Shown here one piece after another: positions 1,376-62,560 of a DNA stretch of 64,000 bases. Source of the DNA: Pyrenophora tritici-repentis (lineage: Eukaryota > Ascomycota > Dothideomycetes > Pleosporales > Pleosporaceae); the NCBI RefSeq assembly GCF_003171515.1, contig NC_089394.1, positions 2,356,001 through 2,420,000 of the forward strand. The letters are read 5' to 3'. Positions within the stretch are counted from its first letter, which is position 1. Each line of letters starts with the position of its first letter. A program made the translations under genes and the position numbers. The notes below the pieces were generated by a model. It searched no databases, was not told the DNA's origin, and worked only from the letters and a program-made list of their open reading frames with translations.

Positions 1376-1679
1376 GCGGCCAATCCTCGCCTATCAGGTC
1401 TTGGCGCGTCTCTATTAGCCAGCGCCGTGACAATACAACTTTAATAACACTAGCTTTATGATAGGCGTTGCAGCTACGTCTAAGGTCGTCACTGTGAGGG
1501 ATCGATCAAGAGTGTGGAGAAAGATTGGATTTGACAAAATACAAGCTATCGAGCTATCTACGTTGTGAGCCCGAACTTGTGGTGTGGGCACCAAGGCGCT
1601 AGTCCGATAAGATAAGGATCTTATCGATATGGGGGCCATAGGCCGAGTCTATGGATCCGTAACAGTTAACCATCTTATC

Positions 1680-1835
1680 TACGCTGGCAAATGGGTCGGG
1701 GTGTGGTTGGGGTTGGGTTAGAAATTTTGCGACCCCAACCCAACCCCAACCCATTTGTCAGCGCCAAGCTTAGGGTTGGGTTGGGGTTGGGTTGGGGTCG
1801 CACGGACCATGGGTTAGGGTTGGGTTATAGTAAAA
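1680..1835. repeat. Left subterminal G-rich repeats of the hAT element
   Basis: This is an array of GGGTTGGG/GGGGTTGGGTT-type blocks in both orientations. It includes an internal reverse copy of the terminal sequence around 1725-1775 and one copy of the 'GTCGCACGGACCATGGGTT' block that recurs at the right end. It mirrors the right subterminal array and probably holds transposase-binding sites. It resembles telomere repeat only superficially. Confidence 0.75.
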
Positions 1836-1991
1836 AAATTGCAAGATGTATAATATAGATTTCAATAAAAGAAAAGTTTATATAGTATCACAGTAGATTA
1901 ACACAGTGTAGCATTAACTAGTTTCATTTATAATATACAGAGGCTTCGCCAGCTAGCATTTAAGCACGTGTATCTAGATATATCTTATAAT

Positions 1992-2564
1992 CTAGAGAAA
2001 AGCTAGTAACTCGCGCGCAAAGTAGCGCCTAGCCAATTGAGAATCCTTCTCTTGAATAGTAACCCTCTTTGCGTGAATAGCATTGATGTTGCAGTCTATA
2101 AAAGTTATTAAATGAAAAATAGTATAGGGTAGATAGACTATACCCTCAAAATAACCAACTAAGAAAGCTTCTGTAGCTTCCTGAAGAGCTTCGATTGCAG
2201 ATCGTCGAAAGCGGATATCGGCCTTGTGCACCTGTGCAAATTCGCGCACTACGCGGGAAAAGGGGAGTTTTCGCAAGAGTAGTTCAAAACCTCTCTGGTA
2301 TCTCTTGATTTCCCGTAATGCGACAGCTAAGCTAAATTAGAAAATAGCTGTGATAAACGACTGTGATAACCTACTGCCGGCCTTAAACTTGCGCTTCTTC
2401 TTAACAGCTACAGGTGCCTTTCGCGTAGACTTTCCTGCTACTTGACGTCTAGCCTTACTAGCAAGGGCCTTCTGAGCCGGCTTGCCGCCAGTAACTGTCT
2501 TGCCATCAGGACCACCCCGGCCGGCTTTACCGGTGACCTTAGGCCGTGGTTTTGTCCTTGCCAT
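1992..2564 (-). CDS. Divergent histone H3-like protein carried by the hAT element
   Basis: Three exons (2375-2564, 2144-2326, 1992-2095) with two 48-nt GT-AG introns give 158 residues; canonical H3 has about 136. Residues 1-5 are MARTK. The core from residue 63 ([12 protein letters not shown]) through [41 protein letters not shown] and QLARR matches the H3 histone fold. By hand, about 60 of 86 core positions agree with a generic H3 recalled from memory. Both splice junctions fall inside conserved core sequence and restore it exactly, which supports the model. The tail is about 19 residues longer. The ARKS motif around K9 is lost (GKTVTGGK instead) and the K27 context is AGKS. The C-terminus ends [11 protein letters not shown]. 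Retained introns argue for DNA-level capture rather than retrotransposition. No stop or frameshift breaks it. A histone variant deposited in nucleosomes is an inference; transcription is unknown. Confidence 0.9.
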
Positions 2565-2612
2565 TGCGTAGTAGAGTAGATGATGAACGTAGGCGACGTA
2601 TGTGATTAATTA

Positions 2613-3030
2613 CTGTGATAAATGTGGTCGACAATTAAGAAAGTAGTAGGCTGAAAGAGTTAGGTAGCTGGAAAGTTTGGGCGACGGCAATTTCCCGATT
2701 TCCGCACTAGTAAAGGCAGCAGCGCACGGACTGCATGACGTAATTTGCTGTTTCACGATCGCATACAACCATTTCTGTTGCAAAATCAGTAGCGAGCATA
2801 TCATACAAACGTGTTAAACTGCTGTGATAAACGCCGAGCTCGCGCATGCGTACAGCCCAAAAATGAAGGAATCATCGATGTGTTGATCATTTTGGGTAAT
2901 TTCCGCGTTTTCGCGCTAGCGCAGGCAGCAGCGCACGGACCATTTCTAGGTGAGCATAATGCTGTCTACCCATTTCTCCAGCCCCTGACGCCCAGTAACT
3001 CCCAACACCTAATAACTCTCTTTACTACAT
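2613..3030. repeat. Diverged ~209-bp tandem duplication between the two element genes
   Basis: The motif CTGTGATAAA occurs at 2613 and 2822, exactly 209 bp apart. A 43-bp block ending GGCAGCAGCGCACGGAC occurs at 2689-2731 and 2898-2940, also 209 bp apart. The spacer between the H3-like start (2564) and the plus-strand gene start (3075) therefore appears to be an old duplication. The better-conserved 43-bp blocks are candidates for shared promoter or transposase-binding elements. Confidence 0.65.
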
Positions 3031-3074
3031 TGAAAACACCCCATTTACAACAGCGCATTATCACAGTCCCCGCC

Positions 3075-3996
3075 ATGCCTGTCGCGAAAGAGCAAGTCGG
3101 CGACGTACCTGAAGGCCTAGTTCCAGCCATCAAACTTGAACCTCCGCCTGGGTTCGAACAAGATGAGTGGGAGCAGCTTACCGATGTAATAATCACAGCC
3201 ATTTATCACAGCTTATGCTAATATAAGCAGGGATTTGCGTGTGAAGCTGACGAGATTGACGGTATCTTAGATCAAAGAGGTAGTGGGGGTTCACGAAAAG
3301 GCCGACCTATCAATTTGAGCGTCCCCTATACTGGCTCTCTGAGTGGTAGCGCCCGTGCTATTGCTCAACGTGAACGCAAAGCTCTTTTCGATAAAGAGGA
3401 GAAGGTACTTGAAAGCGTTAGAACAGCCGACCGCTCCGCGAAGTACCAACTGAAGAAATCGCTTTTGCAACAGCCTAAGTATAAATTAGCAAATAGTGCT
3501 AGACAGGCTAAGCTGCTAGAGAAAGAGTGGGATATACTTTCAGAGAAGCGGTTTACCCAGAAAAAGTCTGGTAAGTTATCACAGCTGTTTATCATAGACA
3601 TCTGCTAATAGACTATCCCAAGTGGCGAAGGATATACTAGCAATACCAATTGCTCAGGTTGGGGTTGAAAGAGTTTTCAATGTTGCTAAGGATGTTATTG
3701 GTAGTCGGAGGCACCGACTATCTGCCCGGACAATACAGCAGATAATGGTTCTTAAGGATACAATATCTCAAGAGGAAGAACAGGGTCTAGACTACCTAGT
3801 TGCTCAATTAGGGGAGGATGGAGAGCCAATTGACGAGGTTAATGATCTTTTTGAGCTTCCAGCCTCGTTAGAGCATACCTTCGATATAGATGAGGAGAAC
3901 CAGACTACAGAAGAAGAGTCGGAGGAAGAGGTCCAGGAGGAGCGTCAATTGCCACCTCGAAAGCGCCAGCGTCCTCAGCGCTACCGTGATAATTAG
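3075..3996 (+). CDS. Element gene: charged N-terminal region fused to a hAT dimerisation domain
   Basis: Proposed exons are 3075-3185, 3231-3570 and 3623-3996, with GT-AG introns of 45 and 52 nt that keep one frame and give 274 residues. The N-terminal ~150 residues are charged and unrecognised (an acidic 'GFEQDEWEQLTD', then GGSRKGRP and a Lys/Glu-rich helical stretch). After the second intron comes a typical hAT C-terminal dimerisation segment: VAKDILAIPIAQVGVERVFN, then GSRRHRLSARTIQQIMVLKD. A very acidic tail and a final Lys/Arg patch (PPRKRQR) that could be a nuclear localisation signal follow. The catalytic RNase H-like core is absent, so it should not be a transposase by itself. It might be a deletion remnant, or a product that dimerises with a full transposase. 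The second acceptor (3621-3622) was chosen because it alone preserves the frame; a nearer AG at 3610-3611 would not. Confidence 0.55.
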
Positions 3997-4143
3997 CTGT
4001 GTTAATATATCTCGTTTTATGTATCTACTATATCATCAACGTGTACACATTATCTTAATTAAGTGTTGTTCCGTTAAAGTACCCAAAAAATATAACCCAA
4101 CCCCAACCCAACCCAACCCAACCCAAGCCCAACCCTACCACTT

Positions 4144-4242
4144 GGTCTGTGCGACCCCAGCCCAGCCCTAACCCATGGTCTGTGCGACCCCAACCCAACC
4201 CTAACCCATGGTCTGTGCGACCCCAACCCAACCCCAACCCAA
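4144..4242. repeat. 33-bp subterminal repeat of the hAT element (3 copies)
   Basis: GGTCTGTGCGACCCCA begins at 4144, 4177 and 4210, a strict 33-bp period, followed each time by runs of CCCAACCC/CCCTAACCC. A related block lies in reverse orientation at the left end. These are probably transposase-binding repeats. The bordering C-rich sequence 4090-4260 is of the same type. Confidence 0.85.
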
Positions 4243-4359
4243 GACTGGGTATACCCAACCCATTTGCCAGCGTAATCTTATCTATACTGCGATTGGCGCG
4301 AAACTAAGTAGGCCACTATCACAATCCGATGGCTCGTTACAGGATGTTATAAGTTCTAA

Positions 4360-5056
4360 GCGTCGCTTTCGGCAATTATAACTCTTCGCTTTGCAACAGG
4401 GTGAATAAGCGTATTTGGTCCAAGCGTCACTTTCAGTTCGCGATTCTTCGCTTTGCCAATATGGCAGTTAATCGATGGCCATCCAAGACTTGCCCAAAGG
4501 AGTAATTCTAGACCACGTGCAAAATCTAGCGTCTCTTGGCACCAGGCGTCACTTTTGAGATTCGCGATTCTTCGCTTTCCTCACGCTGCAATCGATGGCT
4601 AACCAAGACTTGCCCAAAAAGGTAGTTTTACACTCCATGCAAGACACGCTAACTCTCCTAGCCTAAGCGTCGCTTTTGGATTCGCGATTCTCCGCTCTGC
4701 TCCCTTGTGTGACACAGCAATCAATGGCTGATGGATACTTACCCAAAAGGGTACTCTCGTATCACATGAGGAGTCTGCCAGCTACATACAGCACAAGCGT
4801 TACCTGGCGCTGAGGCTCGCGAACGTTCTTTCAATGTTCACTTTCTTCGCAATCCCGCAATCAACGGCTGAGCAAGACTTGCCTAACGGTGCTTTGACGT
4901 GAGGCATTAGTCCTAACGCGCTGAGGTGAGTTCTATGCACCAAGCTTGGCTCCCCTTTGCACTGCGCTCTGCGCTCGCGATTTTTCGCTATTCGTTTGAC
5001 CGTCAATTGATGGGAAGCCAACACCTACCTAAAAGAGCAGTTTAGTAACAAGTGCG
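4360..5056. repeat. Degenerate ~120-bp tandem array (about six units)
   Basis: Units begin near 4360, 4420, 4546, 4665, 4794 and 4941. Each has, in order, GCGTCACTTT-like, TTCGCGATTCTTCGCTTT-like, CAATCGATGGCT-like and CAAGACTTGCCCAAA-like boxes, followed by a diverged spacer. The first unit is incomplete, and divergence increases toward the right. No reading frame persists across the units. This is an old satellite or minisatellite immediately outside the right end of the hAT element. Confidence 0.75.
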
Positions 5057-5612
5057 CTATTCACGGCGGTGTGTACATATACAGGTCTTCTCTATGAACT
5101 ATGCTCACATGTGAGAGTTGATCATCACAGCTTCGGAGCGCTACTTAGGATGATAAGTTTCTCACGTAAGTCATCGCTCGTAAGGTTCTCCTATTGTTTG
5201 CCGCGTACTCCAAGCGCGCAGCAAGTACTGTATGCTGAAAACTTGAGATGTGATAGCATCTATGTTCTATTGCAAGGTAGGCTGCAACTGTGATTTTGTG
5301 TAGTTACGTCCAAATTTGTGATAGCCTGTCCTTGTGGGGAATAGTGGGTGCTGGAGGAATTGAAGGATTGAACTGAGGTTGTATTGTCTGAGTCTACAAA
5401 CTGTATATGCAGGTGGGTGACCATAAACAGCGCTAGTCCTAGATAGGCATCGTTCCATTACAAAGGTAAGTTGCGACTGTAGGAGCAGAGCAGGAGAGAC
5501 CCCAAACCGTGACAGTCCTCCATCTTCCCTCTCTACGAGAAACCCAAGACCTTGGGTTTGGATAATAGGAAAAACTTCTTCCAAACTCTTATCTATTACT
5601 CAAGCCCTTGAA
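5057..5612. other. Spacer, nothing recognised
   Basis: No convincing gene or repeat is seen between the decayed tandem array and the HET-domain gene. Part of it is presumably the 3' UTR of the minus-strand HET gene. Confidence 0.5.
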
Positions 5613-7643
5613 TCAGCCTAGTTTAAACATGATAGATTCGGGCTCCAGCGCCTCCAGCGCATCTGCGCGGACCACTCCAATCGCTCTTCTTTCAGCAACA
5701 TCTCTTACCCACTCGATCCACATGACATTCAGGCCAGCATCAGCATTTTCGTACACGTCTTGAAATAACTTGTTCTTAAAACCCAGACAGGGGTTGTGAT
5801 GCGAGCAGAGTGGCCAAGCGAACTTTGTCACCTGTTTGGGGTCCGATATAACAAATGACGAGAGGATGATCAGCTCACAGGAGGTGCCGGTCATGCACGT
5901 GGCTTTCTGTTCGGGCGAATGAAGGGTAAGATAACCGACGTTGGTGTCATGAACACGCAGACTGGCGAGCAAGTGCATGTCGTTTTCATCCTTTGATTCT
6001 TCTCCAAACAGGAGCTTTACGCGAGGTGCGGTACAGGACAGAACACGTGACTGTTGAAGATGATCTTGGTGGCGTGTTGGGTCCACGGTTGGAAGGGGAA
6101 ATGCGTATGGTATCTGTGAAGTCGATGATTCGCTCGTGAAGTAGATGCCATCCCGGTGAAAACCACGTTCCCAACCTTTCGGAAGATCCTGCTCATTACC
6201 TATTTCCCGTAATGCTTGGTATTGGTAAAATCCGTTGAAATCGGTGCTGCCTTTTGGCACTGTGCCATCTATGGAGACAGTATTGAACTTCGCCAGTTGC
6301 ATCAAAGGGGCGACCGCTAACCAATCCGACGATTTGCCCGTCGCGCGGAAGAGACCTGCATAGAACGGATACCATGGATGCAAACATTCTACAGCACCTT
6401 TCCATCCTGTCCATGACCAACTAGGCTCTCCATGCCGCCTGACAATAGATCCTTTGGGCTGCCATAGCAACACAATGTCGAAGAAAAAGCACGGCATACC
6501 ATGAAGAAGACCCTCAGGAAAAGTCGGGCCCATGACTTCTGTTGCACCCGCAAAGGCATTGAGAGCATCACGGTCGTACCTGAATTCCCGGGAGGTGAAG
6601 TTCTCCACAATCATGCCCCAGCGTCCGAGAGACGGTATGCTGGGTAACAAAGACATCATCCCCATCGGAGCGCCGAGATGGGGGCGTTCGACATCAAAGC
6701 AAGAGTTTCCAGGGAAAGAGTACGCTTTAATGACGCCTTCACGCCAGTCGTAACGGCCACACAACCACGACACTCGGCGATCGAAGCACAGCAGGCGACG
6801 CGAGAAGAGCGACTCCTGAAACGTCCAGCCCCTGGTCACCCATCTGGACTCTAAAGGATAGCCGCCATAGAATCTCAGATCTGTTGATGTCGTATACAGT
6901 GGTCTATCTTGAGACGGACCGCCAATTCCTCTTAGACCGTAGTTTGCGTCAGAGCCAGTAGCAACGATAGTGAATTCAGCGCTTGCATATATATGCGCCA
7001 TGGCTCGTAAGGTTCGATCCATCTCGTGAGAGGGCGCATCCTGTATGACGCATAAACAGTCTACCCAGAGGTATCGCTCCCCTAGTGCAGCTACTAGATA
7101 CATTGCATCTCGGATCGTATTTGGAATGGTGATTTCGGTGTTGGTACTGCATATCGCTCCTGGCTGCTGTAGTTGCTCGAAGTTCGAGGTTAGGGTCTTG
7201 CAGGTGTCCACCTCGCCCCAGACATATGACAGAGCAATGAATGATATAGGCGTCGTATTCGGCAGTTTTACAAGCGAACGGTTCACTACATCGACTAAAA
7301 TAAGGTGGTCAAGGCGAAGTGCCAAGGCTTCTGAATAACGGTCGTTGCAGCAGTCGCCATGAGTATCGTGGCATGCTTTTCGCCATTCCTGAATTGAGTT
7401 GAGATCGATTCTTGGGACCGGGGGTAGGACTACCCTCTCCTCGTCTGGCTCTTCCTCTTCCCCACCAGAGACTGCAAAGTGCGCTTTAGCAAGGATGCTT
7501 GTACGGCGAGATGCATCCAATTCTTCACCGATCATTATGATGATAGAGCCGATACTTGAAAGTAAAGATGAGGTGATACCCAGAGAGCAGTTGTATTGCG
7601 CTGACGATGTACAAGTTGCTGCCTGAATTCCGCCCCCACTCAC
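5613..7643 (-). CDS. HET-domain (heterokaryon incompatibility) protein
   Basis: A single-exon gene of 676 residues. The HET domain lies at about residues 130-290, with recognisable blocks FIALSYVWGEVDT, ITIPNTIRDAMYLVAALGERYLWVDCLCVIQD and MAHIYASAEFTIVATG. Downstream, the family block 'RGWTFQESLFSRRLLCF' is present near residue 270-290. HET proteins act in non-self recognition after hyphal fusion and trigger cell death; many resemble TIR-type signalling domains. No NACHT, ankyrin or WD repeats follow; the rest is the variable C-terminus usual in the largest HET subgroup. The start is the first in-frame ATG; a later ATG (MIGEELDASRR, about residue 37) is an alternative. The gene appears intact, unlike the second HET gene at 51.5 kb. 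Confidence 0.88.
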   Translation of the reverse strand: MSGGGIQAATCTSSAQYNCSLGITSSLLSSIGSIIIMIGEELDASRRTSILAKAHFAVSGGEEEEPDEERVVLPPVPRIDLNSIQEWRKACHDTHGDCCNDRYSEALALRLDHLILVDVVNRSLVKLPNTTPISFIALSYVWGEVDTCKTLTSNFEQLQQPGAICSTNTEITIPNTIRDAMYLVAALGERYLWVDCLCVIQDAPSHEMDRTLRAMAHIYASAEFTIVATGSDANYGLRGIGGPSQDRPLYTTSTDLRFYGGYPLESRWVTRGWTFQESLFSRRLLCFDRRVSWLCGRYDWREGVIKAYSFPGNSCFDVERPHLGAPMGMMSLLPSIPSLGRWGMIVENFTSREFRYDRDALNAFAGATEVMGPTFPEGLLHGMPCFFFDIVLLWQPKGSIVRRHGEPSWSWTGWKGAVECLHPWYPFYAGLFRATGKSSDWLAVAPLMQLAKFNTVSIDGTVPKGSTDFNGFYQYQALREIGNEQDLPKGWERGFHRDGIYFTSESSTSQIPYAFPLPTVDPTRHQDHLQQSRVLSCTAPRVKLLFGEESKDENDMHLLASLRVHDTNVGYLTLHSPEQKATCMTGTSCELIILSSFVISDPKQVTKFAWPLCSHHNPCLGFKNKLFQDVYENADAGLNVMWIEWVRDVAERRAIGVVRADALEALEPESIMFKLG

Positions 7644-60262: not shown

Positions 60263-62560
60263 ATGGAGCCTTCAACACCAACCTCACCGTCCCCATCGAA
60301 TATTATAAGACTAGATTTAACGTCTCTTACTCCATCTCCTATCCCCACGTCATCACCCACCCCTATACTATCACCCACTCCTATTCAATATCACGAATCT
60401 CCAGATGAGTTCGTGCAGGGCGGTATCACGTACGTGAAACGTGCAATAATTGCAAGGAAGGATTTCCGTCAAGGTACATCACACATCTGGAAGTACGGAC
60501 TCCAATACATTCGAGATAGCGATAAGAAAGAGGTGTATTACTGCCATGAGTGCAGGGTTGGGAAGAGCAAGCAAGAGTTGTTTGTCATCAATGGCACTTC
60601 TAGGATCCGGAATCACCTGGAACAGAAGCACCAGATTGATCCCCAGAGTGGCATCAAGCGAAAGGGTTCTGTACGGAAGTCTATAATCGACCAGCAAAAG
60701 GATGGGGCTGCTTCCAGCATCTTTTTCTGGAAGGAGTCAGTAGAGAAGTTTAAAGAGCTTCTAATTCGTTGGATTGTGTACTGCCATATCGCCTTCTTTC
60801 AATTAGAGAACCAGTACTTTCGTGAACTACTCCTCTTTTTAAATCCGGCACTACTCAACCACCTCCCGAAGGCTGCGAAGACTATCCGAAGCTGGGTAAT
60901 GAATGCATTCATATCGAAGAAGCAACAGCTTAGGGAGGACCTACACCATTCACGGAGTAGGATCTCTATCTCCTTTGATCTCTGGACTTCACCAAACCCT
61001 TACGCTATCCTAGGCGTCGTCGCTATGTGGATTGATACTACCGGCATGCGACGTGTTACCGCTTTAGGTATGCGACGTATATACGGCGAACATACTGGAG
61101 AGAATCTTGGATCGGTGGTCCTTGAATTGCTGGAAGAATACGACATTAGCGGAGATCAGATTGGATACTTTATGCTGGATAATGCCTCGGCAAATGATAC
61201 CGCTGTTGAGTTTATACTCAAGGATCTCTGCCCATGGATGAAGTCAAAACAACGTCGTCATCGCCGGCTGCGTTGCTTGGGCCATGTCATCAACCTCTGT
61301 TGCCAGGCGTTCCTTATGGGGCGAAACTGTGAGAAGTATCTTGCGAAGCTGGAGAAGCATCATCAACGTGGCGACTATACGAAGGTGGAAGAGCTCTGGA
61401 AGAAGTTCGGATGTTTGGGTCGTCTTCACAACCTGGTGCGATACATCAGGCTTACTCCACAACGGCGTGAGGAGTTTGCTACAATTATTATCGGCGGAGA
61501 TCTTTCGCAATTCGACGGGCTTGAGCTTATCCAGAACAACTCGACCCGCTGGAACTCATGGTTTTATTCGATTACACGTGCATTAAATGTTCGAGAACGT
61601 TTAGAGCTCTTCTCGGCTCGTCATGTACCTGGAAAGGGCTCCGTAGGGATCGCGAACTTTAAGCTTGATGGACAGCACTGGTTTGAGCTTGAAAAGATTG
61701 AACTCGCTCTCAAAGACTTCTATGCTGCAACTTTGCTTTCTGAAGGTAAGAAGACGTCACTTGCGGACTGGTTTTCAACTTTGGACTGCCTTCTCCGGGA
61801 GATAAGCGAGACGAAGGATCACTACCACGACATCCACACTGAGGACGATAACAACTTTACATGGAAGTACCTTCAAGGCTGCGCTGATGCTGCTTGGTTA
61901 AAGTGCGTTGAGTACTATAACAATCAGCAGCTGAATTGGCAAAATCGATTCCCTGAAGATACTGACCTTCCACCGGCATATTATGCGGCTCAAATCCTTG
62001 ATCCATATCGCAAGTGGGGATGGTTCAGGCAAGAGTGGGTTCTTCATGGCGACGAAGAGAAGAAGAGGTGGTTTGAAAACGCACAATTAGCGGTGAAGCA
62101 TCTCTGGGAGACAGAGTATAAGGGAAGGTACCCTGTCGAGATGCTGCCACCACCAGCCAGGAAGGAGAGAGATCCTGACCCAGCATTTGATCGCCAGCGG
62201 GAACATAAGCGCATTCGAATAGACGCTCCAGTTTCTACAACTGATTTGTATGAACAATACATCTCTACTGACCGGCTTCATAACGAAGAGGCAGGTTGCA
62301 ATGAGGCTATTGCGTACTGGCTATCTCGCTACGACTCCCAACGAGATCTCGCTCGCTTCGCTCTAGACATGTTTGCGATCTCGCCTATGTCGGATGAATG
62401 CGAACGTCTTTTTAGTAGCGCGAAGCTTACTATCGTCGATCGCCGTGGTAGGCTGAAGGCAGATATTATAGAAGCGTGCGAGTGTCTCCGGGCCTGGTAT
62501 GGAAAGCCCCAAGCTGAGGGGAACAGCGATATCGAGGATAGTGAGAACGAAGACGACTAG
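60263..62560 (+). CDS. hAT transposase (765 residues, apparently intact)
   Basis: A single uninterrupted exon. A BED-type zinc finger occupies residues ~72-125 (YYCHECRVG, then RNHLEQKH). The RNase H-like core has the first acidic block SFDLWTSPNPYA (~238), the second FMLDNASANDTAVEF (~305), then LRCLGHVINLCCQAFL, TRWNSWFYS, and an all-helical insertion. The C-terminal dimerisation/catalytic region reads FALDMFAISPMSDECERLFSSAK then RRGRLKADIIEACECLRAW. The D, D and E expected for hAT catalysis are all present. Its ends carry different repeats from those of the element at 1680-4274, so the two are different hAT families and cross-mobilisation is not expected. Confidence 0.93.
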   Translation: MEPSTPTSPSPSNIIRLDLTSLTPSPIPTSSPTPILSPTPIQYHESPDEFVQGGITYVKRAIIARKDFRQGTSHIWKYGLQYIRDSDKKEVYYCHECRVGKSKQELFVINGTSRIRNHLEQKHQIDPQSGIKRKGSVRKSIIDQQKDGAASSIFFWKESVEKFKELLIRWIVYCHIAFFQLENQYFRELLLFLNPALLNHLPKAAKTIRSWVMNAFISKKQQLREDLHHSRSRISISFDLWTSPNPYAILGVVAMWIDTTGMRRVTALGMRRIYGEHTGENLGSVVLELLEEYDISGDQIGYFMLDNASANDTAVEFILKDLCPWMKSKQRRHRRLRCLGHVINLCCQAFLMGRNCEKYLAKLEKHHQRGDYTKVEELWKKFGCLGRLHNLVRYIRLTPQRREEFATIIIGGDLSQFDGLELIQNNSTRWNSWFYSITRALNVRERLELFSARHVPGKGSVGIANFKLDGQHWFELEKIELALKDFYAATLLSEGKKTSLADWFSTLDCLLREISETKDHYHDIHTEDDNNFTWKYLQGCADAAWLKCVEYYNNQQLNWQNRFPEDTDLPPAYYAAQILDPYRKWGWFRQEWVLHGDEEKKRWFENAQLAVKHLWETEYKGRYPVEMLPPPARKERDPDPAFDRQREHKRIRIDAPVSTTDLYEQYISTDRLHNEEAGCNEAIAYWLSRYDSQRDLARFALDMFAISPMSDECERLFSSAKLTIVDRRGRLKADIIEACECLRAWYGKPQAEGNSDIEDSENEDD

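What the first reader, a model, noticed from the sequence alone, without database searches (positions are those of the whole stretch)
1680..4274. A hAT transposon that carries a spliced histone H3-like gene
Seen in sequence: 17-bp terminal inverted repeats, a perfect 8-bp target duplication ATCTTATC, and between them a minus-strand gene whose three exons rebuild the H3 histone fold exactly at both splice junctions. Known: hAT elements can capture host DNA (transduplication). I recall a report of this for histone H3 in Pyrenophora tritici-repentis but cannot verify it. Inferred: the gene has stayed uninterrupted while evolving away from canonical H3, which suggests selection, perhaps because a modified H3 on or near element DNA helps it avoid silencing or affects its chromatin.
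Basis: partly seen in the sequence, partly recalled or inferred. Interest (0 to 1): 0.92.

Follow-up and report, generated by a model that had tools for sequence, protein, structure and literature searches.

The report
Transposon carrying an old histone gene
A jumping gene in what is very probably a wheat-disease fungus carries its own unusual histone H3, which was already published, but the histone looks older and more widespread than thought and goes with a second gene, so the transposon may use it to change its own packaging.

Summary
Element and gene are already published for Pyrenophora tritici-repentis (Manning 2013, PMC3538342): this is the 'short form', an internal deletion of a longer element with transposase, H3L and a 'central ORF'.
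New here: H3L is no recent copy of the host H3. It groups with H3L proteins of P. teres, Paraphoma, Parastagonospora nodorum, Alternaria, Massariosphaeria and metagenomes (support 98/97; weaker without the signature columns). All 9 have N110 and Y130 at the H3-H3 interface; 7 of 9 lack K9. In P. teres and P. nodorum, H3L and the central-ORF homologue have neighbouring locus tags. The central protein has an acidic tail, often ending in FEGF. Most introns share a tandem TTATCACAG motif.
Best reading: an old transposon-borne histone-plus-partner module, most likely acting on the element's own chromatin. Age and constraint are supported; the anti-silencing function is inference, and one old copy was mutated by RIP, so protection is not absolute.

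The parts
1672..1679 (.). left target-site duplication ATCTTATC
4275..4282 (.). right target-site duplication ATCTTATC
1680..1696 (+). left 17-bp terminal inverted repeat
4258..4274 (-). right 17-bp terminal inverted repeat
4122..4241 (.). right subterminal 33-bp tandem repeat (CCCAACCC-rich); an inverted counterpart lies at 1776-1826
2375..2564 (-). H3L exon 1 (ATG at 2564)
2327..2374 (-). H3L intron 1, 48 nt, contains the tandem TTATCACAG motif
2144..2326 (-). H3L exon 2
2096..2143 (-). H3L intron 2, 48 nt, no TTATCACAG motif
1992..2095 (-). H3L exon 3 with stop codon
3075..3185 (+). chimeric gene exon 1 (from the central ORF)
3186..3230 (+). chimeric gene intron A, 45 nt, with tandem motif
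3231..3570 (+). chimeric gene exon 2 (from the central ORF)
3571..3622 (+). chimeric gene intron B, 52 nt, holds the deletion junction GACTAT at 3611-3616
3623..3996 (+). chimeric gene exon 3 = transposase C-terminus; hAT dimerisation domain PF05699
1885..1906 (+). tandem TTATCACAG-type pair near the left end (3 mismatches)
   Evidence: L028 706-727
2348..2369 (-). tandem pair in H3L intron 1, exact
2600..2621 (-). tandem pair upstream of H3L
2809..2830 (-). tandem pair between the two genes
3045..3066 (+). tandem pair upstream of the chimeric gene
3190..3211 (+). tandem pair in intron A
3576..3597 (+). tandem pair in intron B
3984..4005 (-). tandem pair near the right end (3 mismatches), pointing inward like the left one

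Best explanation
This is the non-autonomous short form of a hAT transposon. It arose by loss of the middle of a 5.9-kb parent between two GACTAT hexamers, which fused the start of the central ORF to the end of the transposase. It is presumably moved by transposase from the long copies. Its H3L gene is an old component of the element's lineage, kept together with the central ORF. Proposed action, in steps: (1) H3L is transcribed, spliced and made (published ESTs; protein not shown); (2) it pairs with host H4 through the conserved histone fold (inferred); (3) altered residues at the H3-H3 interface (L109I, C110N, L130Y, R131F) bias it towards H3L-H3L rather than mixed nucleosomes (inferred); (4) the acidic, FxGF-ended central protein escorts it or links it to the transcription-elongation machinery (inferred); (5) nucleosomes without a K9-S10 switch resist H3K9-methylation silencing and keep the element expressed or accessible (inferred). 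The short form keeps H3L but loses the C-terminal part of the central protein, so in step 4 it would depend on long copies.
For: Element anatomy and deletion; same structure published (PMC3538342). Clade: 98/97 for 9 H3L rows against 27 other H3 rows. N110 in 11, and N110+Y130+Y/F131 in 10, of 154 listed H3 proteins that could be read, all of this group. Neighbouring tags: P. teres CFE70_001393 (H3L, P0094) / CFE70_001394 (central, P0124), same listed contig length; P. nodorum HBI18_252420 (P0143) / HBI18_252410 (P0140), both on a 6,674-base contig. Constraint: 36 of 87 core columns invariant in 8 lineages; neutral simulations at matched identity average 20.7, maximum 31 of 600 runs. Positions 109, 110, 126 and 130 are those altered to make obligate H3 heterodimers (H3Y = L109I, A110W, L130I; PMC5626479, passages). 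C-terminal FxGF in 6 of 12 central proteins examined; FxGF in partners of LEDGF/IBD domains: PMC6877644, passages. Intron motif shared by the genes and by relatives.
Against: No protein, nucleosome or silencing datum. One old long copy (L038) was hit by RIP (68 of 89 substitutions C>T/G>A, 56 of these 68 in CpA), so carrying H3L did not protect it. Two metagenomic clade members keep K9 (P0067, P0069). Inside this genome the H3L frame shows no sign of purifying selection (two missense sites, one silent, one deletion). With the signature columns removed the 9 rows are not recovered as one group (one clade not rejected, AU p = 0.243). The simulation assumes a star tree, and databases and searches favour intact, conserved genes. 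Transposase linkage outside P. tritici-repentis was not tested; gene adjacency elsewhere is read from locus tags, not DNA, and for the second P. teres central copy (P0128) no H3L neighbour was seen. FxGF is missing in Boeremia and Exserohilum. No fold match for the central protein.
Confidence: 0.42

Rival explanations
1. Published reading: an H3 gene was transduplicated by the hAT recently and independently in P. tritici-repentis and may simply have drifted; it has no role for the element.
For: Copies in this genome are nearly identical and show no excess of silent change; Dhillon 2019 calls the event recent and independent (PMC6710886), Manning 2013 suggests drift.
Against: H3L proteins of the same group in several other Pleosporales, the same neighbour gene in two of them, column constraint, and introns unlike the host H3. 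Recent spread of copies does not date the capture.
Confidence: 0.2
2. H3L and the central ORF are an accessory host gene pair of Pleosporales (a divergent H3 and its partner); a hAT picked up both in a Pyrenophora ancestor.
For: The transposase was not shown beside the pair outside P. tritici-repentis (no call tested it).
Against: The central gene is listed more than once in P. teres (P0124, P0128, with RIP-like D>N and E>K changes, by eye) and in Boeremia (P0134, P0135); introns of the transposase, central ORF and H3L share one motif, and two metagenomic central proteins read through an intron with that motif.
Confidence: 0.15
3. H3L and the central protein serve transposition itself (donor-site chromatin, end accessibility, or tethering to transcribed target DNA, as HIV integrase does through LEDGF), not escape from silencing.
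For: FxGF motif; inward-pointing tandem motif pairs near both ends, in 6 of 7 introns and between genes; the short form keeps the dimerisation domain.
Against: Other hAT elements do without histones (recalled); the short form has lost the FxGF end of the central protein yet outnumbers the long form (22 of 33 copies fetched).
Confidence: 0.2

Closest known systems
H3L-carrying hAT of Pyrenophora tritici-repentis (Manning et al. 2013, PMC3538342)
   Same: Same element: long and short forms, H3L, central ORF, gactat junction, chimeric protein; ESTs reported there. H3L proteins named for this species are 99% identical.
   Different: Sizes are given there as about 5.6 and 2.3 kb (here 5.9 and 2.6). 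That section (part 1) suggests drift and gives the central ORF no function; the wider clade, gene pair, interface residues, FxGF motif and intron motif are not in it.
H3-carrying hAT of Pseudocercospora fijiensis and relatives (Dhillon et al. 2019, PMC6710886)
   Same: hAT with 8-bp duplications and an H3-like gene in a Dothideomycete.
   Different: 9.5-kb element, H3 copies without introns, all inactivated by RIP; the authors found no similarity to the P. tritici-repentis hAT. Not compared by sequence here.
Centromeric H3 (CenH3/CENP-A)
   Same: Divergent tail and histone fold.
   Different: H3L lacks the longer loop 1 of the host CenH3 and falls apart from it in the tree.
Engineered H3X/H3Y obligate heterodimers (PMC5626479)
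   Same: Changes at the same H3-H3 interface positions (109, 110, 130).
   Different: Designed, paired, and in yeast; H3L is natural and its pairing is unmeasured.
FxGF partners of LEDGF/IBD domains (JIL-1, IWS1, MLL1; PMC6877644)
   Same: Acidic residue-FxGF motif in a disordered acidic stretch.
   Different: No binding shown for the central protein; whether the fungus has a matching receptor was not tested.

Membership tests
hAT superfamily | 8-bp target-site duplication | tested here: met
   ATCTTATC on both sides; perfect in 15 of 19 full-length short copies and 7 of 10 long copies with both ends
hAT superfamily | short terminal inverted repeats | tested here: met
   17 bp perfect
hAT superfamily | C-terminal dimerisation domain PF05699 | tested here: met
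   window ORF 3598-3996 35.9 bits, cut-off 21.4; long-form exon 74.4 bits
hAT superfamily | RNase-H-like catalytic core | tested here: inconclusive
   lost from the short form; long form PF14372 at 20.2 bits, under the cut-off 27
Histone H3 | H3 histone fold | tested here: met
   PF00125 108.4 bits; for P0001 (99% identical) the PDB chains listed best are H3, E 5e-40; AlphaFold helices in H3 order but mean pLDDT only 59.8
Histone H3 | canonical tail with K9/S10 | tested here: not met
   no ARKS around position 9; anchored on GGK, K9 is T and S10 is V (read by eye)
Histone H3 | deposition in nucleosomes | not testable with these tools
   -
CenH3/CENP-A | extended loop 1 | tested here: not met
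   no insertion where the host CenH3 has one
Recent transduplication of the host H3 gene | close identity to and same introns as the host gene | tested here: not met
   69% core identity; host H3 has one intron after Q19, H3L has two at other places
FxGF ligands of LEDGF/IBD-type domains | acidic FxGF motif in a disordered stretch | tested here: met
   in 6 of 12 central proteins; chance 0.2-1.1% per protein in shuffles of the last 60 residues
FxGF ligands of LEDGF/IBD-type domains | binding to such a domain | not testable with these tools
   -

The most novel reading that the evidence does not exclude
A DNA-transposon lineage has kept, through the divergence of several Pleosporales lineages, its own histone H3 variant together with a dedicated acidic escort protein, and uses them to build self-pairing, K9-less nucleosomes that host heterochromatin machinery cannot mark: a transposon-encoded chromatin system.
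Probability: 0.25. Interest if true: 0.93.

Novelty: new variant of a known kind. Interest (0 to 1): 0.62.

Why it matters
Transposons are usually seen as silenced by chromatin, not as makers of it. If an element lineage has carried a histone variant under constraint, with a partner gene, it would be a natural counterpart of engineered or dominant-negative histones. It would also make a direct test possible of whether mobile DNA can defend itself by changing its nucleosomes. It would also correct a published dating: the copies spread recently, but the gene is old.

Tried and rejected
CenH3 identity: rejected (no loop-1 insertion; apart in the tree). First splice model with a 39-nt intron: rejected (against 29, 90). 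Central ORF: Pfam gave only sub-threshold hits, no PDB relative, no fold match, no relative in viral contigs. AlphaFold model of H3L is of low confidence and was not used for argument. Copy-to-copy selection test: too few changes. C-terminal peptide against PDB: nothing. The 2015 paper on the LEDGF motif was not held. First neutral simulation (mean 18.5, maximum 29 of 1000) ran at a slightly lower identity than observed (0.682 against 0.704); repeated with matched identity, where runs at clearly higher identity (0.770) did reach the observed 36 in 45 of 600. The first exon of the transposase was not settled; intact transposase (6 of 11 long copies read as 775 residues) is counted from a tryptophan codon in the following exon on, and one copy (L032) could not be modelled. 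The last protein search went to H3L, so the transposase was not sought in other species; that search had only 49 candidates and did not re-find P0054, P0065, P0066, P0067, P0069 or P0094, so species missing from it prove nothing.
Full report
What is there. Window 1680-4274 is a 2,595-bp element with perfect 17-bp terminal inverted repeats and a perfect 8-bp duplication ATCTTATC. On the minus strand lies H3L: exons 2564-2375, 2326-2144, 2095-1992, two 48-nt introns, 158 aa, Pfam Histone 108.4 bits. On the plus strand, 3075-3996, lies a chimeric gene whose last exon carries the hAT dimerisation domain.

The genome. The window lies in an unnamed 40.9-Mb genome of 41 contigs. H3L and the central ORF are 99-100% identical to proteins named Pyrenophora tritici-repentis, so the host is very probably that species (inference). 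I fetched 33 copies: 22 short (19 full-length, 3 partial) and 11 long; the genome search scores only its best candidates, so more may exist. Fifteen of 19 full-length short copies have a perfect 8-bp duplication. The four others are an inverted pair with swapped duplications (L015), which looks like an inversion by recombination, and one insertion that is present on two contigs (L020, L022). Of the long copies, 10 have both ends (5,846-5,882 bp) and 7 of these a perfect duplication; L034 lacks its right end. The long form holds H3L, a 354-aa central ORF and a full transposase. The short form joins its positions 1-1937 and 1932-2595 at GACTAT. H3L reads as an intact 158-aa frame in 30 of 33 copies, 27 identical; the exceptions are a truncated copy (L027), a frameshift (L030) and a RIP-mutated copy (L038). 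This window's copy alone has Q104R; two others have E78G. The central ORF reads as 354 or 358 aa in 9 of 11 long copies; the transposase, from a tryptophan after its unsettled first exon, as 775 residues in 6 of 11.

Already published. Manning et al. 2013 (PMC3538342; passages, section 20 part 1) describe this element, both forms (given as about 5.6 and 2.3 kb), the gactat junction, 26 H3L genes, and ESTs for H3L and for the chimeric gene. Dhillon et al. 2019 (PMC6710886; Results, Discussion part 1 and Methods) call the event recent and independent of an H3-carrying hAT in Mycosphaerellaceae whose copies are inactivated by RIP. In three literature listings (3 of 3 papers; 8 of 8; 20 of 190) I recognised no other paper on H3L; most of those papers I did not open. 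The main text of the 2022 pangenome paper PMC9594970 has no word beginning with 'histone'. So the element itself is not new; I found no print account of the points below in these searches.

New: H3L is old. The host H3 gene (L039) encodes a canonical H3 with one intron after Q19; H3L has introns at T45 and D106 and 69% core identity to it. The protein search (7,925 hits, best 120 listed) and a second one with residues 96-158 (45 hits of 49 candidates) gave H3L relatives in P. teres (P0054, P0094), Paraphoma (P0057, partial), P. nodorum (P0143), Alternaria (P0065), Massariosphaeria (P0066) and metagenomes (P0067, P0069). Of 159 listed H3 proteins, 154 could be read at the signature positions (5 dropped: P0030, P0038, P0043, P0053, P0181): N110 in 11 (one of them the frameshifted P. 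tritici-repentis P0031), N110+Y130+Y/F131 in 10, all of this group. In a tree of 36 rows chosen by me, the 9 H3L rows are one group with 98/97 support. Because rows were picked by the signature, I rebuilt the tree without those columns (81 columns kept): one divergent Zymoseptoria H3 then falls among the H3L rows and two H3L rows (P0065, P0067) fall on the other side of a weak branch; one clade is not rejected (AU p 0.243), and 26 of the 27 other rows are still set apart from all H3L rows (95/91). In 8 lineages 36 of 87 gapless core columns are invariant; neutral simulations on a star tree at matched mean identity, with stops excluded, gave 20.7 on average and at most 31 in 600 runs. Databases hold mostly intact genes and searches favour conserved ones, so this test is supportive, not final.

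New: a gene pair. The central ORF has 22 hits, in P. tritici-repentis, P. teres, P. seminiperda, Boeremia, Exserohilum, P. nodorum and metagenomes. In the two other species where tags of both genes were seen they are neighbours: P. teres CFE70_001393/001394 (same listed contig length) and P. nodorum HBI18_252420/252410 (both on a 6,674-base contig). For the second P. teres central copy (CFE70_001257, P0128) and for the other species no H3L neighbour was seen; the searches were limited. A second central-ORF lineage (P0131, 44% identical) is listed for other P. tritici-repentis isolates; in this genome its best matches are the known copies, plus one short relic at C7:2008686.

The central protein is predicted mostly helical with long helices and a low-confidence acidic tail (mean pLDDT 70.9), has no fold or sequence match among solved structures, and has (D/E)FEGF(S/P) at its C-terminal end in 6 of 12 sequences examined (P. 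tritici-repentis P0121, P. teres P0124, P. seminiperda P0127, P0131, P0133, P. nodorum P0140). It is missing in Boeremia (2), Exserohilum and three incomplete or altered models (P0122, P0123, P0128). FxGF is the motif by which partners bind LEDGF/IBD domains (PMC6877644, passages); related TFIIS-N-terminal-type domains and their motifs: PMC13175633 and PMC12278311, passages. Whether the central protein binds such a domain is not known.

H3L residues. Over the 9 clade sequences, 110 is N in 9, 130 is Y in 9, 131 is Y or F in 9, 124 is S in 8 and M in 1, 109 is I in 7 and L in 2. Positions 109, 110, 126 and 130 form the H3-H3 hydrophobic cluster that was redesigned to make obligate heterodimers (PMC5626479, passages). 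Anchored on GGK (read by eye), K9 is lost in 7 of 9 sequences (kept in P0067, P0069) and S10 in 8 of 9 (kept in P0067). Reading: H3L can probably pair with H4 but pairs differently with H3, and lacks the K9/S10 switch in most lineages.

New: an intron motif. In the long element (L028, with 500-bp flanks) the tandem pair TTATCACAG-N3-TTTATCACAG, up to 3 mismatches, occurs 11 times against 0.01 expected. Six of the 7 introns that I could define in the three genes carry it near the 5' splice site (sequences; H3L intron 2 does not); five pairs lie between genes or near the ends, those near the two ends pointing inward. Genome-wide the exact pattern has 43 hits and 0 hits of the reversed control; 42 lie in the copies fetched and one (C2:4952392, L069) in a fragment of the same element. 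Two metagenomic central proteins read through intron B with the same motif (P0141 KLSQLFITG, P0142 KLSHYIITV), and P0131 through intron A with its first unit. So the motif-bearing introns look old too. Whether it is a transposase site, a host-factor site (its reverse complement holds GATAA; GATA-factor binding is recalled, not tested) or a splicing aid is open.

Defence. The old long copy L038 has 89 substitutions in the compared left part, 68 of them C>T/G>A and 56 of these in CpA, against a CpA share of 230 of 879 CpN dinucleotides: a RIP signature. The other 32 copies have 0-7 substitutions. The host could therefore mutate this element at some time; H3L did not make it immune.

Mechanism and confidence. 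Shown: element, deletion, gene structures, copies. Well supported: old H3L group, gene pair, constraint. Inferred: nucleosome incorporation, altered pairing, escort by the central protein, escape from K9 silencing. I put about 0.95 on the element anatomy, 0.85 on an old H3L lineage, 0.7 on a pair kept with the hAT, and 0.3-0.4 on a chromatin function for the element.

Noticed in passing
window 5613-7643, minus: Long ORF with a heterokaryon-incompatibility (HET) domain, 91.2 bits.
   Followed up: no
window 60263-62560, plus: A second, different ORF of 765 aa with the hAT dimerisation domain (PF05699, 30.1 bits).
   Followed up: no
window 4420-5057: Degenerate repeat of about 120-146 bp spacing right beside the element.
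   Followed up: no
L015 (C4:2928190-2937320): Two short copies in opposite orientation with swapped 8-bp duplications: looks like an inversion by recombination between the copies.
   Followed up: partly
L038 (C1:7525191-7532091): A 95%-identical long copy with a clear RIP signature while the other 32 copies are nearly clean.
   Followed up: yes
L028 706-6103 and window 1885-4005: Tandem 13-bp-period TTATCACAG motif in introns and intergenic stretches of all three genes; function unknown.
   Followed up: partly
P0131 (other P. tritici-repentis isolates): A second central-ORF lineage, 44% identical, of which this genome shows at most a short relic.
   Followed up: partly
P. teres P0054/P0094 and P0124/P0128: Pairs of copies differ by C>T-like changes (H>Y, P>L, D>N, E>K), suggesting repeated, RIP-exposed copies there as well (by eye).
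   Followed up: no
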